Shown in pieces: positions 1,119-39,422 of a stretch of DNA of 64,000 nt (position 1 is its first letter; each line of letters begins with the position of its first letter). Both the position numbers and the translations under genes were made by a program. Under the pieces are notes generated by a model. That model did no database searches. It was not told the DNA's origin and worked only from the letters and a program-made list of their open reading frames with translations. Source of the stretch: Nodosilinea nodulosa PCC 7104. GTDB lineage: Bacteria > Cyanobacteriota > Cyanobacteriia > Phormidesmidales > Phormidesmidaceae. The stretch spans positions 1,824,214-1,888,213 of the forward strand of contig NZ_JH976537.1 of the NCBI RefSeq assembly GCF_000309385.1, in the 5' to 3' direction.

Positions 1119-2444
<1,326 letters not shown>

Positions 2445-2446
2445 GG

Positions 2447-3712
2447 ATGGTGTCTTTAGGCAGAGATGGAGTGGTGGGCAGTGCCCGCCCTACGGCGGAG
2501 GTGGCTTACCTGCAAAGTCCGCAGGCGGTTCGCGATCGCAGCCGTGTCCTCTTTACCCTGGCCGAGGCCGATCAGCTCCAGCACTTTCGCTACCATCCCG
2601 AAGCTATGCCTGCGACGGCCGCCTACGTCCTCGACGTGATGGGGCAGCAGTACCCCGACGGCAACGTGCCCTTTCACTCCCGCTGGCGGCATTTTGAGGT
2701 GGAGGGGCGATCGCGCCTCGATCTCCTGGAGCCAGAGTTATTATCACTGGAGCCGCTGGAGCAGGCCAGGCTCAAGGTGGATTTGGCGATCGCCAGCGTG
2801 CTTTTAGATGCGGGGGCCGGCAGCCAGTGGCGGTACGTGGAACCTCATACAGGGCTGGAGTTTCAGCGATCGGAGGGGCTGGCGATCGCCAGCTTCCACA
2901 GCTTTGCATCCGGTCTCTTCTCCAGCCAGTCCGAGCGTCCCTGGCAAGCAGACGCTCACGGACTTACGCAGCTCACCGCCAAACGCCTCGCCCACGCCTT
3001 CCAGGTCCAAAGCGACAACCCGCTGCTAGGACTCGAAGGGCGGGTGGCGCTGCTGCAAAAGCTCGGCCACACCCTGCACCAGCAGCCAAAATGCTTCGGC
3101 ACAGAATGTCCCCGCCCAGGGCACCTGGTCGATTACTGGCTCTCTCAGGCGACAGATAACCGCCTCTCAGCCACCACCATTTTGCAAACAATCCTCCGAG
3201 GCCTGGGGCCAATCTGGCCCGGACGGGTAGAGCTGGTAGGCGTGAACCTGGGCGACGTATGGCCCCACCCTCAACTACCTGATGCTGACCCCGGTAGCAA
3301 TCTGATCCCCTTCCACAAGCTCTCCCAGTGGCTTACCTACTCGCTGCTTGAACCGCTGCAAGACCTGGGCCTGACCATTATCGATTTAGATCAGCTCACC
3401 GGCCTGGCCGAATACCGCAACGGCGGCTTATTCCTCGATCTTGGCGTCCTCAGCCTGAAAGATCCAGCTGTTGCTGACATTGCCCACCCCCCCGGCTCCC
3501 CTCTAATCGTCGAATGGCGCGCCCTCACCCTGTGCCTATTAGATGATCTGGCGACTCACCTGCGCCAAACCCTCAACCTAGACACCGCATCTCTGCCGCT
3601 GGTCAAGATTCTCCAGGGCGGCACCTGGACAGCGGGGCGTCAAATTGCGGCGGAGAAGCGCCCCGGCGGTGGCCCACCGATTCAGCTAGCCAGCGATGGC
3701 ACGGTGTTTTAA
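2447..3712 (+). CDS. DUF1688 protein, URC4 homologue
   Basis: 421 residues of the DUF1688 family; the yeast member, Urc4, is needed to grow on uracil through the URC route. Family landmarks are the N-terminal QAVRDRSRVLFTLAEAD segment, the conserved VPFHSRWRHFEV motif near residue 75, and the C-terminal EYRNGGLFLDLGVL and VEWRALTLCLLDDLA blocks. No signal peptide or membrane span is seen, so it should be cytoplasmic. The start is two bases after the URC1-like stop codon, implying translational coupling in one transcript. The first ~18 residues look poorly conserved, so a later start is possible. The catalytic step performed by this family is not settled. Confidence 0.9.
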   Translation: MVSLGRDGVVGSARPTAEVAYLQSPQAVRDRSRVLFTLAEADQLQHFRYHPEAMPATAAYVLDVMGQQYPDGNVPFHSRWRHFEVEGRSRLDLLEPELLSLEPLEQARLKVDLAIASVLLDAGAGSQWRYVEPHTGLEFQRSEGLAIASFHSFASGLFSSQSERPWQADAHGLTQLTAKRLAHAFQVQSDNPLLGLEGRVALLQKLGHTLHQQPKCFGTECPRPGHLVDYWLSQATDNRLSATTILQTILRGLGPIWPGRVELVGVNLGDVWPHPQLPDADPGSNLIPFHKLSQWLTYSLLEPLQDLGLTIIDLDQLTGLAEYRNGGLFLDLGVLSLKDPAVADIAHPPGSPLIVEWRALTLCLLDDLATHLRQTLNLDTASLPLVKILQGGTWTAGRQIAAEKRPGGGPPIQLASDGTVF

Positions 3713-3831
3713 AGTTCAAAATTCAAAATGGAGAATTCAAAATTTTGAACGTTGCCTTTTGAATTCTCCCCCACCTCCCCCATCCCATCCACCCATCCAC
3801 TCCTCTACCCTCCCACTCCTCCACCCTCCCC
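3713..3831. repeat. Alternative AT-rich hairpins and a C-rich repeat between URC4 and upp
   Basis: Two perfect inverted repeats share sequence. The first pairs 3714-3723 with 3741-3750 (GTTCAAAATT arms); the second pairs 3731-3742 with 3757-3768 (GAGAATTCAAAA arms). Arms 3741-3742 and 3731-3742 overlap, so only one hairpin can form fully at a time. Bases 3769-3831 are a C-rich tract of CCCATCC/CCACTCC-type units running right up to the upp start codon. Similar C- or G-rich tracts occur at 10838-10863, 26993-27072 and 47417-47462 in this window. It may be a terminator region or repeat debris; no function is assigned. Confidence 0.6.
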
Positions 3832-4464
3832 ATGCCTGATCTCCACCTCATCGACCATCCCCTGATTCAGCACAAGCTCACCCTGATGCGGCGGGCCGAA
3901 ACCAGCACGGCCAAATTTCGCACCCTGCTGCGGGAAATTAGCCTGCTGATGGCCTACGAGGTGACGCGGGATCTGCCGCTGAAGCTAGAGACTATTCAAA
4001 CCCCGATGGCCACCATGGAGGCCCCAATTCTGGCGCCGGAGAAAAAGCTGGTGGTGGTCTCGATTATGCGGGCGGGGCAGGGCATTCTTGACGGCATTCT
4101 GGAGCTAATACCCTCGGCGCGGGTGGGGCACATTGGCCTTTACCGCGATCCCCAGACGTTGCGGGTAATTGAGTACTTCTTTAAGGTGCCAGAAGATTTG
4201 AGCGATCGCGACGTCCTGGTCGTTGACCCCATGATCGCCACGGGCAATACGGCGGTGGCGGCGCTGTACCCCCTCAAGCAGGCCCAGCCGCGATCGCTGC
4301 GGTTTCTCTGCCTGCTGGCCGCCCCCGAAGGCATCGCCTACTTTCACAGCGAGCACCCCGATGTGCCCCTCTACGCCGCCGCCGTAGATGAAAAGTTGGA
4401 TGAGCGCGGCTATATTTTGCCGGGTCTGGGGGATGCGGGCGATCGCCTGTTTGGTACCAAGTAG
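3832..4464 (+). CDS. upp: Uracil phosphoribosyltransferase
   Basis: Converts uracil and PRPP to UMP in the cytoplasm. At 210 residues it matches the bacterial family length (E. coli about 208). The PRPP-binding loop [14 protein letters not shown] is near residue 130, the N-terminal [12 protein letters not shown] is typical, and the C-terminal [21 protein letters not shown] matches the uracil-binding end. It follows the URC1-like and URC4 genes on the same strand after a 119-base gap. In the yeast pathway the uracil phosphoribosyltransferase (URC6) feeds the same route, so here it may serve degradation as well as salvage. The ATG is the first codon after the C-rich tract, and no clear Shine-Dalgarno is seen. 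Confidence 0.96.
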
Positions 4465-5340
4465 GCCAGAGTTCCCACCGACGCTAGGCTGCTACCGACA
4501 GCCAGTTAAAAGCTTGGTTACCAGTGCATACTTCCGGCCTATAAAAAAGGGCTTTTTGCCGTAATTTTTAAACAGCCATTATCTTAAATTAATCCGCAGA
4601 TGTTATTTAAGGCCGTCGTTCCAAGCCGCCAGAGTTTCTTAAACCTTAGAATCAACTTGACAATAAATTGTTTAAGATAGACAGAATGTGAAGCCCAGGG
4701 GCAAAGCGCCCAGATTGAGCAACGACGGCCGGTTTATGTAAAGCTCTTCTTAACCATATTGAGAATTCTTCACAAAGTTTTCGTTACATCTCAAACGCAT
4801 TACTTTCAGTGGTTTCGAGAATTTGCCTCAACAAAACCTATTCTCTGACGCACTAATTCACGCAACTTAACAGTTCTAAATCACTCGATCATAATACTTC
4901 TCTTAACATTTTTTTAAGCCTTGCCAAGGCTCTGTGCAGCAACGATTTAGGCAATGGTGGAACTTTTTCTGGGCTATCCTTAGCAATCTTTTAAGGGTTT
5001 TCGGAGGTCGATTTGAGGCGGTTTCTACGGTGCGGTACTTCCTCGTGTTGTTTTGGTAACAGTGTTTTATTCGCGGCCAGTTAAAATGGGTCCATCGCAC
5101 CAAGCGCTGCGCTCAGCGTTCTTGATACAGTCTTGTTCTGACACAATCTTGTCTGACACAGCTTTGGTCGATAAACAATCCGTGTTGGGGTTTGTTGGTG
5201 TAAAGGTCTTGAGTAATTGAGATCGCATTGTCAAAGTAAATGACCCAAGTTTGCCCCTAGCCGGGCGCTTGCGGCCTCTGCTTCGAGCCTACGGGCTGCC
5301 AGCGAATTCTTGTGTGACCATTAGAGTATTAAGGGTTCTT
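4465..5340. other. Long AT-rich intergenic region upstream of glgP
   Basis: This stretch is much richer in A+T than its neighbours and holds no convincing gene. Near its start is a weak hairpin (around 4540-4565, with an A-run facing a T-run) that could end the uracil operon transcript. A perfect 10-base inverted repeat (GGCCGTCGTT at 4611-4620 and its complement at 4721-4730) spans 100 bases. Near the glgP end is an imperfect tandem repeat of TCTTGT(T)CTGACACA around 5131-5160. The region probably carries the glgP promoter and a long leader; regulatory sites cannot be assigned from sequence alone. Confidence 0.5.
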
Positions 5341-7869
<2,529 letters not shown>

Positions 7870-23268: not shown

Positions 23269-24165
23269 TCAGGCAGCCAGGGCGATCGCCCCTAAAACCC
23301 TCTCTGGCTCTGGCCTATAGCCTTCACCGCTGGCCTCCGACCGGCCCAGGCGCCGCCCCAGTGCCGCCGCGATGGGATCGAGGCTGCGGGCCAAATTAGC
23401 CATCTCCTCCAGGGTAAGGGCCTGGCGCGCATCTGACACAGACTGCTCGGGAACGGGGTGACATTCGACCATTATCCCATCGGCCCCGGCGGCGATCGCG
23501 GCCCGAGCCAGGGCCGGTACCAGTTCGCGCTTGCCAGCGGCATGGCTGGGGTCCACCATCACCGGCAGGTGGGTAATTTGCTTCAGCGCCACCACCGCCC
23601 CCAGGTCGAGGACGTTGCGGGTGTAGGTATCAAAGCTGCGAATGCCTCGCTCGCAGAGAATCACGCTGGGGTTGCCGTGGCTGAGAATGTATTCCGCCGC
23701 CATCACAAACTCTTCGATGGTGGCGGCCAGCCCGCGCTTCAGCAGCACCGGCTTGTCGATGCGGCCCAGGGCCTTGAGCAGGTCGAAATTCTGCATGTTG
23801 CGGCTGCCCACCTGCAACACGTCCACATAGTCGGCCATCAGCTCAATCTGGTCAATGGCCATCACCTCAGAGATGACCGGCATCTGAAACCGCTGGCGCA
23901 GGTCGTCGAGGATGCGCAGTCCGGCCTCTCCCATGCCCTGGAAGGCGTAGGGGGATGTGCGGGGCTTGAACACCCCGCCCCGCAGCGCCTGAACGGGCGC
24001 CTGGAGCAGTTGGTGGCCCACCTGCTCCATTTGCTCGGCACTTTCCACGGCGCAGGGGCCGCCCACAACTAGCAGGGTGTCGCCGCCCACGGCGACGGCA
24101 TCGGTGAGGGCAACCACCGAGCGGTGGGAGGGATCAGATTTACGGGTCAACGTAGCGTCTTTCAT
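23269..24165 (-). CDS. aroF: 3-deoxy-7-phosphoheptulonate (DAHP) synthase
   Basis: First enzyme of the shikimate pathway: phosphoenolpyruvate plus erythrose-4-phosphate gives DAHP. The 298 residues belong to the short AroF class (B. subtilis/Thermotoga type) without a fused chorismate mutase or ACT domain. Motifs: VVGGPCAVESAEQME, GGVFKPRTSPYAFQGMG, DVLQVGSRNMQNFDLL, VLLKRGLAATIEE, ILCERGIRSFDTYTRN and MVDPSHAAGKRELV. ATG 24165 (MKDATLTRKSD) is chosen; an upstream ATG at 24234 would put coding sequence just past the second attenuator terminator. Absence of a regulatory domain fits control at the leader (24231-24575). Confidence 0.95.
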   Translation of the reverse strand: MKDATLTRKSDPSHRSVVALTDAVAVGGDTLLVVGGPCAVESAEQMEQVGHQLLQAPVQALRGGVFKPRTSPYAFQGMGEAGLRILDDLRQRFQMPVISEVMAIDQIELMADYVDVLQVGSRNMQNFDLLKALGRIDKPVLLKRGLAATIEEFVMAAEYILSHGNPSVILCERGIRSFDTYTRNVLDLGAVVALKQITHLPVMVDPSHAAGKRELVPALARAAIAAGADGIMVECHPVPEQSVSDARQALTLEEMANLARSLDPIAAALGRRLGRSEASGEGYRPEPERVLGAIALAA

Positions 24166-24230: not shown

Positions 24231-24312
24231 CCAAAAACTAAAAAACCCGAAGCTGGTGGCTCCGGGTCAGGTAAGGGGCATAGGAAGACCTATCACCAAG
24301 CGCCTGACCCGG
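24231..24312 (-). promoter_or_regulatory. Attenuator 2 of the aroF leader: antiterminator/terminator pair
   Basis: On the minus strand the terminator is a nine-base stem ACCCGGAGC (24267-24259) with GCTTCGGGT (24253-24245), loop CACCA, then TTTTTAGTTTTT. The competing antiterminator is a perfect 10-base pairing: CCGGGTCAGG (24312-24303), inside the leader peptide 2 codons, with CCTGACCCGG (24271-24262), which contains part of the terminator's 5' arm. The two structures exclude each other. A ribosome held at the aromatic codons just upstream leaves 24312-24303 free and favours readthrough. A ribosome reaching the stop codon at 24295-24293 covers that arm and favours termination, about 65 bases before aroF. 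Confidence 0.88.
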
Positions 24313-24370
24313 TGGGGTAAAAAAAGTCGTAGTACCAGTTAGACAAAGGGCAGGGGATGAAAAATTGCAT
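24293..24370 (-). CDS. Aromatic leader peptide 2 of aroF
   Basis: A 25-codon frame ATG to TGA encoding MQFFIPCPL, then SNWYYDFFYP, then TGSGAW. Nine of 25 residues are Phe, Tyr or Trp, with WYY and FFY close together at residues 12-18. The antiterminator arm of attenuator 2 begins four bases after the Tyr18 codon. No Shine-Dalgarno is seen, as often in cyanobacteria. The residue bias, position before a mutually exclusive terminator and downstream DAHP synthase identify it as an attenuation leader peptide. Confidence 0.85.
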   Translation of the reverse strand: MQFFIPCPLSNWYYDFFYPTGSGAW

Positions 24371-24392
24371 GGCTAGACGCAGGGAAAGGGGT

Positions 24393-24473
24393 TTAAAGAA
24401 ACAAAACCGCAGAGGGTAAGCTCTGCGGTTCACAAGGGTTTCAGCACAAAAGATGCTCACGACCTGTGAACCG
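24393..24473 (-). promoter_or_regulatory. Attenuator 1 of the aroF leader: antiterminator/terminator pair
   Basis: Minus-strand terminator: perfect 10-base stem AACCGCAGAG (24430-24421) with CTCTGCGGTT (24414-24405), six-base loop, then TTTTGTTTCTTT. Competing antiterminator: CGGTTCACA (24473-24465), in the last codons of leader peptide 1, pairs perfectly with TGTGAACCG (24434-24426), which overlaps the terminator's 5' arm by AACCG. The geometry repeats that of attenuator 2. It lies about 35 bases upstream of leader peptide 2. Confidence 0.85.
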
Positions 24474-24516
24474 ACGGCTGCCACCAAAAATAAAATGCTT
24501 GGACTGATGCGATCAT
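24457..24516 (-). CDS. Aromatic leader peptide 1 of aroF
   Basis: A 20-codon frame ATG to TGA encoding MIASVQAFYFWWQPSVHRS. Residues 8-12 are five consecutive aromatic residues (Phe-Tyr-Phe-Trp-Trp). The antiterminator arm of attenuator 1 starts seven bases after the last Trp codon, and the stop codon is five bases beyond the arm, so a terminating ribosome would mask it. The start lies about 24 bases after the predicted transcription start. No Shine-Dalgarno is evident. Confidence 0.85.
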   Translation of the reverse strand: MIASVQAFYFWWQPSVHRS

Positions 24517-24546
24517 GGGTGCAAAATCGAAACAAAACGTATCTGC

Positions 24547-24575
24547 AATCTAGCAGGGCTTTTGGGGAGCGTCAA
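24547..24575 (-). promoter_or_regulatory. Predicted sigma70-type promoter of the aroF leader
   Basis: On the minus strand TTGACG (24575-24570) and TAGATT (24552-24547) are separated by exactly 17 bases, a close match to the vegetative promoter. Transcription would start near 24540, giving a leader of about 375 bases that contains both leader peptides and both attenuators before the aroF start at 24165. Confidence 0.7.
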
Positions 24576-38988: not shown

Positions 38989-39145
38989 AGCTTCCAGTAC
39001 GTTCTCTCCCAAGGCCGACGGAGTTAGCTGACGGGCGAGGGGTGAGAGATCCCCTTCTCTGGCGATGCGTTTCGCCCTGAGATAAGCCCCAAAAGGTGGT
39101 TCCTCCGTTTCAGTCCGCTCTTGACGGAAGCTGAATTAGGCAAGC
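38989..39145 (-). ncRNA. c-di-AMP riboswitch (ydaO/yuaA type)
   Basis: The minus strand carries the diagnostic ydaO blocks in order: GAAACGGAGGAACCA, then TTTTGGGGCTTATCTCAGG, a variable hairpin (AGAGAAGGGGATCTCT), and GCCCGTCAGCTAACTCCGTC. A flanking pair AGCTTCC (39132-39126) and GGAAGCT (38995-38989) could close the domain. The ydaO class binds c-di-AMP and usually turns expression off on binding. A terminator lies downstream. The core aptamer is about 39011-39132. The part of the 38887-39422 gap beyond 39146 shows nothing further. Confidence 0.92.
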
Positions 39146-39422
39146 GTAACTATTTGATTAAACGGAAATTTAGCATATCCGCACAGGATCAACAATCGTT
39201 GTCCGGTAAAAGCGGGGCCAATCCCTAGGTTTTATAGACATCGCCAGATCGGTTAGGCCATTCTTCCTCACCGCTTCGGCGCGTTGGCCGTGCCATCTCC
39301 GTTGTCGCCAGTAGCCGTGACCAATGTCCCAAGCCCGTTGCCACTGCAAGATACCGATTTCGCGGCGGGGGTTGGGAATGAGATGCGGCCTTGACAAATC
39401 AGCGGAGCTTTTGCCTTCCTGG

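What the first reader, a model, noticed from the sequence alone, without database searches (positions are those of the whole stretch)
24231..24575. Tandem translation-coupled attenuators sensing Phe/Tyr/Trp control DAHP synthase
On the minus strand, one sigma70-like promoter (TTGACG-17-TAGATT) is followed by two complete attenuators in series before the aroF start at 24165. Each has a short leader peptide packed with aromatic codons, an antiterminator whose 5' arm starts 4-7 bases after the last aromatic codon, and an intrinsic terminator whose 5' arm is shared with the antiterminator. In both, the peptide's stop codon is placed so that a terminating ribosome would cover the antiterminator arm. 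The reiterated design makes chance unlikely. DAHP synthase makes the precursor of all three amino acids read by the leader codons, so the logic is coherent: two checkpoints, each needing aromatic shortage to pass. Translation attenuation of aromatic genes is classical in enterobacteria, but I know of no described tandem version, nor of one on cyanobacterial aroF.
Basis: partly seen in the sequence, partly recalled or inferred. Interest (0 to 1): 0.95.

Follow-up and report, generated by a model that had tools for sequence, protein, structure and literature searches.

The report
Twin aromatic-sensing switches before aroF
Upstream of aroF, which encodes the first enzyme of aromatic amino-acid synthesis, this cyanobacterium and its relatives carry two leader-peptide attenuators in a row, conserved in sequence and base pairing, that are predicted to stop transcription unless phenylalanine, tyrosine or tryptophan runs short.

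Summary
Two leader-peptide attenuators lie in series between one promoter and aroF (minus strand, 24575-24165). Of 98 non-redundant aroF leaders, 93 hold both units by an automatic rule; by eye three of the other five do too, and two have a displaced stop in leader 2. All four helices covary. The promoter is conserved in 93 of 97. No shuffle of 1000 gave two such units.

Of 386 genomes of the phylum, 38 hold this short AroF: 36 of them have both units, one only the first, one only the second. The window's AroF lacks the N-terminal ferredoxin-like allosteric domain; 20 leaders of the longer form show no such unit (domain confirmed in 10 of 10 scanned).

Most likely mechanism: ribosome-mediated transcription attenuation, twice in series, sensing aromatic aminoacyl-tRNA. 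Leader translation, termination and the starvation response are untested. A 2016 paper saw no reliable data for attenuation in cyanobacteria; the tandem leader-peptide case found, mgtCBR, senses two different signals. New variant of a known kind.

The parts
24547..24575 (-). Promoter-like site: TTGACG (24575-24570), 17 nt, TG then TAGATT (24552-24547)
   Evidence: a TTGAC-type box with a -10 at 17-19 nt in 93 of 97 relatives, 89 of the 93 with TG before the -10
24457..24516 (-). Leader ORF 1, MIASVQAFYFWWQPSVHRS; aromatic run 24495-24481
   Evidence: leader 1 with terminator in 97 of 98 relatives by rule
24427..24472 (-). Antiterminator 1: arms 24472-24463 and 24438-24427
   Evidence: fold z -3.1; covariation on 32 leaders
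24395..24431 (-). Intrinsic terminator 1 (stem 24431-24404) and U-rich tail
   Evidence: covariation
24293..24370 (-). Leader ORF 2, MQFFIPCPLSNWYYDFFYPTGSGAW; main aromatic run 24337-24317
   Evidence: leader 2 with terminator in 94 of 98 relatives by rule
24262..24312 (-). Antiterminator 2: arms 24312-24303 and 24271-24262
   Evidence: fold z -4.9; covariation of the majority register on 41 leaders
24233..24268 (-). Intrinsic terminator 2 (stem 24268-24244) and U-rich tail
   Evidence: covariation
23269..24165 (-). aroF: DAHP synthase of type I-beta, catalytic core without the ferredoxin-like allosteric domain

Best explanation
The aroF leader holds two leader-peptide attenuators in series, each predicted to work by ribosome-mediated transcription attenuation that senses charged Phe-, Tyr- and Trp-tRNA. 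Shown in sequence: one promoter-like site, two aromatic-rich leader ORFs, two antiterminators whose 5' arm overlaps the end of the leader ORF, two terminators that share an arm with them, and covariation in all four helices. Inferred: when aromatic tRNAs are charged, the ribosome reaches each leader's stop codon, covers the 5' antiterminator arm, and the terminator forms; when one is scarce, the ribosome stalls on the aromatic run, the antiterminator forms and RNA polymerase passes. Because polymerase must pass both units, read-through would multiply, giving low basal expression and a steep response. Also inferred: this control stands in for enzyme-level feedback, since this AroF lacks the allosteric domain.
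For: Both units in 93 of 98 leaders by rule. All three aromatic residues in 94 of 97 first leaders and 93 of 94 second leaders; F, Y and W are 33.5% and 38.4% of the residues. Covariation: antiterminator 1 91.6% of cells paired, 7 of 13 pairs changed on both sides; terminator 1 95.5%, 6 of 11; antiterminator 2 91.7%, 3 of 9; terminator 2 92.2%, 6 of 11; in each, 0 of 500 shuffles reach the covariation score. Promoter box in 93 of 97, and a TTGAC box between the units in only 1 of 93. With the ribosome on the first codon of the run the shared arm is sequestered 0.97 and 0.90 on average, on the stop codon 0.33 and 0.18, with shuffled 5' sequence 0.56 and 0.59; stall minus stop exceeds 0.3 in 92 of 94 and 88 of 91. 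Of 38 genomes with the short AroF among 386, 36 have both units and 2 have one. No such unit in 20 leaders of the longer AroF.
Against: No RNA data. Strict folding rules are met by fewer leaders: 30 of 97 and 51 of 94, 17 of 94 and 59 of 91. For antiterminator 2 two measures (pairs changed on both sides, further pair types) do not exceed shuffles. A Shine-Dalgarno core is found before leader 1 in 1 of 97 and before leader 2 in 25 of 94 (before aroF in 70 of the 98 tested), so leader initiation rate is uncertain. Without any ribosome unit 1 is predicted to read through (terminator base 0.15). In L048 and L053 leader 2's stop is displaced and its frame runs on into the terminator region. G164 and G191 keep only one unit, so two are not indispensable.
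Confidence: 0.87

Rival explanations
1. Both units are attenuators in form, but only one regulates under given conditions; the other is a backup or fine-tuner, so there is no true series gate.
For: G164 keeps only unit 1 and G191 only unit 2; in two leaders the stop of leader 2 is displaced; G387 of another class has one leader by eye.
Against: 36 of 38 short-AroF genomes keep both units, and all four helices covary, so both are under selection.
Confidence: 0.08
2. The leader peptides act as arrest peptides in the ribosome tunnel that sense a free aromatic amino acid (TnaC-like, recalled), not as codon counters.
For: The peptides are strongly conserved in class: V-H in leader 1 is near invariant (V in 89 and H in 90 of 90 distinct peptides) and W before it is 83 of 90.
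Against: F, Y and W interchange within the runs, for example Y 52/F 29, F 60/Y 28 and F 61/W 22 of 90. The V-H codons coincide with the invariant or nearly invariant RNA arm GGTTCAC.
Confidence: 0.03
3. The leaders report general translation capacity (light, dark, stress) rather than aromatic amino acids; the aromatic run is only a slow stretch.
For: Unit 1 without a ribosome is predicted to read through (terminator base 0.15), so poor leader translation of any cause would raise aroF there; unit 2 would not (0.91).
Against: All three aromatic residues occur in 94 of 97 and 93 of 94 leaders, in front of the first enzyme of the aromatic pathway; the same kind of scan gave nothing before the own genome's pheA, two trpE-type genes and second DAHP synthase.
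Confidence: 0.02

Closest known systems
Classical leader-peptide attenuators (E. coli trp as type; as described in PMC3641672, section 11)
   Same: Short leader ORF rich in codons of the pathway product; alternative antiterminator and intrinsic terminator; ribosome position would decide.
   Different: Two complete units in series for one signal, on a cyanobacterial DAHP synthase. No stem formed with the codon run itself was needed in the model; the leader's end overlaps the antiterminator arm.
Tandem attenuators of Salmonella mgtCBR (PMC3641672, abstract and section 11)
   Same: Two leader ORFs, two attenuators in one leader, additive action reported there.
   Different: mgtCBR senses ATP and proline-tRNA, and its stem-loops do not resemble intrinsic terminators; here both units carry Phe, Tyr and Trp codons and intrinsic terminators.
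uORFC-13-1 motif before aroF in Acholeplasma (PMC8632094, passages)
   Same: Candidate leader ORF with Phe codon(s) and a terminator before the same kind of gene.
   Different: One unit, Acholeplasma and unidentified environmental sequences only.
Predicted attenuators before DAHP-synthase operons: Vibrio aroA-I-alpha-Y > tyrA, Thermus aroA-I-beta > tyrA; two units in a pneumococcal supraoperon (PMC1173090, passages); aroF attenuator for Tyr-tRNA cited in PMC2659441 (passages)
   Same: Attenuation proposed at the first step of aromatic synthesis; two units in one operon mentioned.
   Different: Database predictions or citations; the passages that I read give no tandem leader peptides, no covariation and no cyanobacterium.

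Membership tests
Ribosome-mediated (leader-peptide) transcription attenuators | Short leader ORF rich in codons for the end product | tested here: met
   97 and 94 of 98 leaders by rule, 33.5% and 38.4% aromatic
Ribosome-mediated (leader-peptide) transcription attenuators | Mutually exclusive antiterminator and terminator sharing an arm, kept by covariation | tested here: met
Ribosome-mediated (leader-peptide) transcription attenuators | Ribosome on the codon run frees, and ribosome on the stop blocks, the antiterminator | tested here: inconclusive
   computed shift in 92 of 94 and 88 of 91, but stricter rules pass fewer; no experiment
Ribosome-mediated (leader-peptide) transcription attenuators | Leader ORF is translated | tested here: inconclusive
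   Shine-Dalgarno core before leader 1 in 1 of 97, before leader 2 in 25 of 94; starts mostly ATG
Ribosome-mediated (leader-peptide) transcription attenuators | Read-through rises when the cognate charged tRNA falls | not testable with these tools
   needs RNA measurement
mgtCBR-type tandem attenuators | Two leader ORFs with alternative stem-loops in one leader | tested here: met
mgtCBR-type tandem attenuators | The two units read different signals | tested here: not met
   both leaders carry F, Y and W codons; by sequence only
mgtCBR-type tandem attenuators | No intrinsic terminators | tested here: not met
   both units have stem plus U-rich tail
T-box or known riboswitch leader | Match to an Rfam family at the gathering score | tested here: not met
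   no match in the leader; the only match in the window is at 38999-39152

The most novel reading that the evidence does not exclude
Feedback on the gateway enzyme was moved from protein to RNA. A cyanobacterial DAHP synthase without its allosteric domain is controlled instead by two same-signal attenuators in series, a multiplicative aromatic-tRNA gate, while the domain-bearing form of the same enzyme lacks them. It would be the first demonstrated ribosome-mediated attenuation in cyanobacteria and the first tandem one for a single signal.
Probability: 0.5. Interest if true: 0.85.

Novelty: new variant of a known kind. Interest (0 to 1): 0.74.

Why it matters
Leader-peptide attenuation is a textbook control, yet a 2016 paper states that there is no reliable data on it in cyanobacteria (PMC4833913, passages). 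This locus gives a conserved, directly testable case in named genera such as Nostoc, Calothrix and Leptolyngbya-like strains (record titles). It raises a clean question: why two checkpoints for the same signal rather than one. The link to an AroF without allosteric domain suggests that RNA control can stand in for enzyme feedback at the entry of a major pathway. If it works as predicted, the leader would also cap flux in cyanobacteria engineered for aromatic products.

Tried and rejected
Rejected: known riboswitch or T-box. Rejected: chance. Rejected as real: two marginal unit-2 model hits in G139 and G377, which lie antisense in other genes. The unit-1 hit of G083, which lacks the short AroF, sits before a decayed aroF remnant, with no terminator found. 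Looked for a similar leader before the own genome's pheA, two trpE-type genes and second DAHP synthase: none by the scan used. The first scan read some unnamed-genome loci in the wrong orientation; corrected. The first equilibrium rule for termination suits unit 1 badly, because the inner half of its terminator stem coexists with the antiterminator; I then used sequestration of the shared arm before the 3' arm is made. All three results are given.

Rows dropped: 110 loci became 100 non-redundant; two had under 200 bases upstream, leaving 98. Five loci were left out before alignment, and L030 was then left out of A2; after thinning of similar rows 32 of 92 (unit 1) and 41 of 89 (unit 2) were aligned. 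L044, L055 and L104 (unit 1) and L021, L105 and L030 (unit 2) were left out. The 98 loci are close relatives of the query and not independent; the sample of 386 genomes, drawn evenly from the phylum, is the fairer count. Limits: the phylum model searches used stricter filters and scored 10 candidates a genome, so further copies could be missed; the scan also missed the single units of G191 (L161) and G387 (L163), so its 0 of 20 is not proof of absence; G093 and G215 show a stop inside the aroF match, not looked into.

Full report
Observation. The minus strand between 24575 and 24165 holds, in order, a promoter-like site, leader ORF 1, an antiterminator, a terminator, leader ORF 2, a second antiterminator, a second terminator and the aroF start. 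The arm starts 8 and 4 nt after the aromatic runs rather than 4-7, and leader 2 ends in an extra Trp codon past the antiterminator arm. In single-strand folds the antiterminators reach z -3.1 and -4.9 and the terminators -6.3 and -4.0. Of 1000 dinucleotide shuffles, none gave two leader-plus-terminator units and three gave one.

Conservation. The closest named relatives are Nodosilinea and allied strains. From 57 genomes of relatives and one scan of genome contigs (best 80 kept of a capped list) came 110 aroF loci, 100 non-redundant, 98 with at least 200 bases upstream. By an automatic rule leader 1 with its terminator is in 97 of 98, leader 2 with its terminator in 94, both in 93. Of the five exceptions, L018, L019 and L084 show the missing unit by eye; in L048 and L053 the run and a terminator-like stem are there, but leader 2's stop is displaced and the frame runs into the stem. 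Leader 1 typically reads YFYFWF..VHRE and leader 2 WFYGFYFWPR.SSG. Titles include Nostoc, Calothrix, Scytonema, Brasilonema, Leptolyngbya, Microcoleus and Oscillatoria.

Base pairing. On 32 distinct leaders antiterminator 1 has 91.6% of cells paired and 7 of 13 pairs changed on both sides; terminator 1 95.5% and 6 of 11. On 41 leaders antiterminator 2 has 91.7% and 3 of 9; terminator 2 92.2% and 6 of 11. In all four none of 500 column shuffles reached the covariation score. For antiterminator 2 the number of pairs changed on both sides (204 of 500 shuffles as high) and the further pair types (433 of 500) do not stand out; the window pairs there in a shifted register (compare). In unit 2 the shared arm covaries with both of its partners.

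Promoter. A TTGAC-type box (one is TTGAAA) with a -10 at 17-19 nt lies upstream of leader 1 in 93 of 97 loci, 89 of these with TG before the -10; between the units a TTGAC box was found in 1 of 93; a control stretch held a bare box in 11 of 94. One promoter upstream of both units is therefore the conserved design; transcription starts were not measured.

Ribosome model. The ribosome was taken to cover 13 nt from the first base of the A-site codon (a recalled footprint). With the ribosome on the first codon of the run and RNA made up to the terminator loop, the shared arm is sequestered 0.97 (unit 1) and 0.90 (unit 2) on average; on the stop codon 0.33 and 0.18; with shuffled 5' sequence 0.56 and 0.59. 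The difference exceeds 0.3 in 92 of 94 and 88 of 91. Stricter rules passed fewer: 30 of 97 and 51 of 94, 17 of 94 and 59 of 91. With no ribosome, unit 1 is predicted to read through and unit 2 to terminate (terminator base 0.15 and 0.91). In unit 1 24% of Trp codons in the run release the arm (above 0.6) against 79% of Phe and 96% of Tyr; in unit 2 the values are 92%, 91% and 85%. This hints that unit 1 reads mainly Phe and Tyr and unit 2 all three, but it hangs on the assumed footprint.

Codon reading or arrest peptide. Over 90 distinct leader-1 peptides the five core run positions are 90-99% aromatic while F, Y and partly W interchange. Over 84 distinct leader-2 peptides the run positions are 77-99% aromatic, with one G/S gap at 23%. 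The near-invariant V-H of leader 1 coincides with the conserved RNA arm GGTTCAC. This favours codon reading.

Initiation. A Shine-Dalgarno core is found before leader 1 in 1 of 97, before leader 2 in 25 of 94 and before aroF in 70 of 98 tested. The leaders would have to start without it or weakly; this is the softest point of the model.

Phylum survey. Covariance models of unit 1 and unit 2 were run on 386 genomes of the phylum: 38 and 39 genomes hit. The protein search gives 38 genomes with the short AroF, at 65% identity or more, G426 with a split gene included. Of these 38, 36 have both units, G164 only unit 1, G191 only unit 2 (recounted). Among the other 348, unit 1 hits only G083, before an aroF remnant, and unit 2 gives two marginal hits antisense in other genes. 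G387, outside the window's class, has an AroF at 60% identity with one aromatic leader, MMKRFYYFSFYPNALRC, and a terminator by eye; the scan did not list it.

Enzyme. P0001 is a type I-beta DAHP synthase core: Pfam PF00793 without PF18152, NCBIfam PRK08673 from model position 72, aligned to chain 1rzm from residue 80. In Thermotoga the N-terminal ferredoxin-like domain binds Phe or Tyr and restricts the active site (PMC5526877, passages). Twenty stretches of the longer AroF, chosen by me from the list, carry 72-100 residues before the matched core; the ten scanned all have the ferredoxin-like domain, and 0 of 20 show a leader-plus-terminator unit. Ten short forms scanned from their match start show the core and no such domain; that stretch could not show an upstream domain. 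The own genome holds a second PF00793 enzyme without such a leader and no PF01474 enzyme. The swap from enzyme feedback to RNA control is an inference from this pattern; that the short AroF is insensitive to aromatic amino acids is untested.

Literature. Ten paper searches of an open-licence library listed no report of this element; subscription papers were not searchable. PMC4833913 (passages): no reliable data on attenuation in cyanobacteria. PMC3641672 (abstract and section 11): tandem attenuators of mgtCBR, two different signals, no intrinsic terminators. PMC8632094 (passages): one candidate leader ORF before aroF in Acholeplasma. PMC1173090 (passages): predicted attenuators before DAHP-synthase operons in Vibrio and Thermus, two units in a pneumococcal supraoperon. 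PMC2659441 (passages): cites an aroF attenuator for Tyr-tRNA. PMC2965389 and PMC1242208 (passages): nothing on cyanobacterial aroF in what I saw.

Verdict. The structure is secure; its action is a strong inference by analogy with classical attenuation. A tandem, same-signal design on a DAHP synthase without allosteric domain, in cyanobacteria, is a new variant of a known kind.

Noticed in passing
L160 (G426:C1:3949500-3957900), about 1465-7316: aroF of this genome is split by an insert of about 5.8 kb flanked by 16-bp direct repeats and encoding a Phage_integrase-family recombinase; both attenuators remain upstream. It may be an excisable element like those known from heterocyst formers (recalled).
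   Followed up: partly
L157 (G083:C48:72000-74700): A unit-1 leader without a recognisable terminator stands before a short decayed aroF remnant, as if enzyme gene and attenuators decay together.
   Followed up: partly
L163 (G387:C1:1425500-1427600): Outside the window's class, an AroF at 60% identity has one aromatic leader ORF and one terminator by eye, a possible single-unit forerunner.
   Followed up: partly
window 38999-39152, minus strand: c-di-AMP riboswitch (RF00379, 67.1 bits) upstream of a 445-aa ORF at 38886-37549 that looks like a membrane transporter by eye (not scanned).
   Followed up: no
Leader 1 of the aroF relatives; window 24516: A Shine-Dalgarno core is found before leader 1 in 1 of 97 loci but before aroF in 70 of 98 tested; how leader 1 starts is open.
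   Followed up: partly
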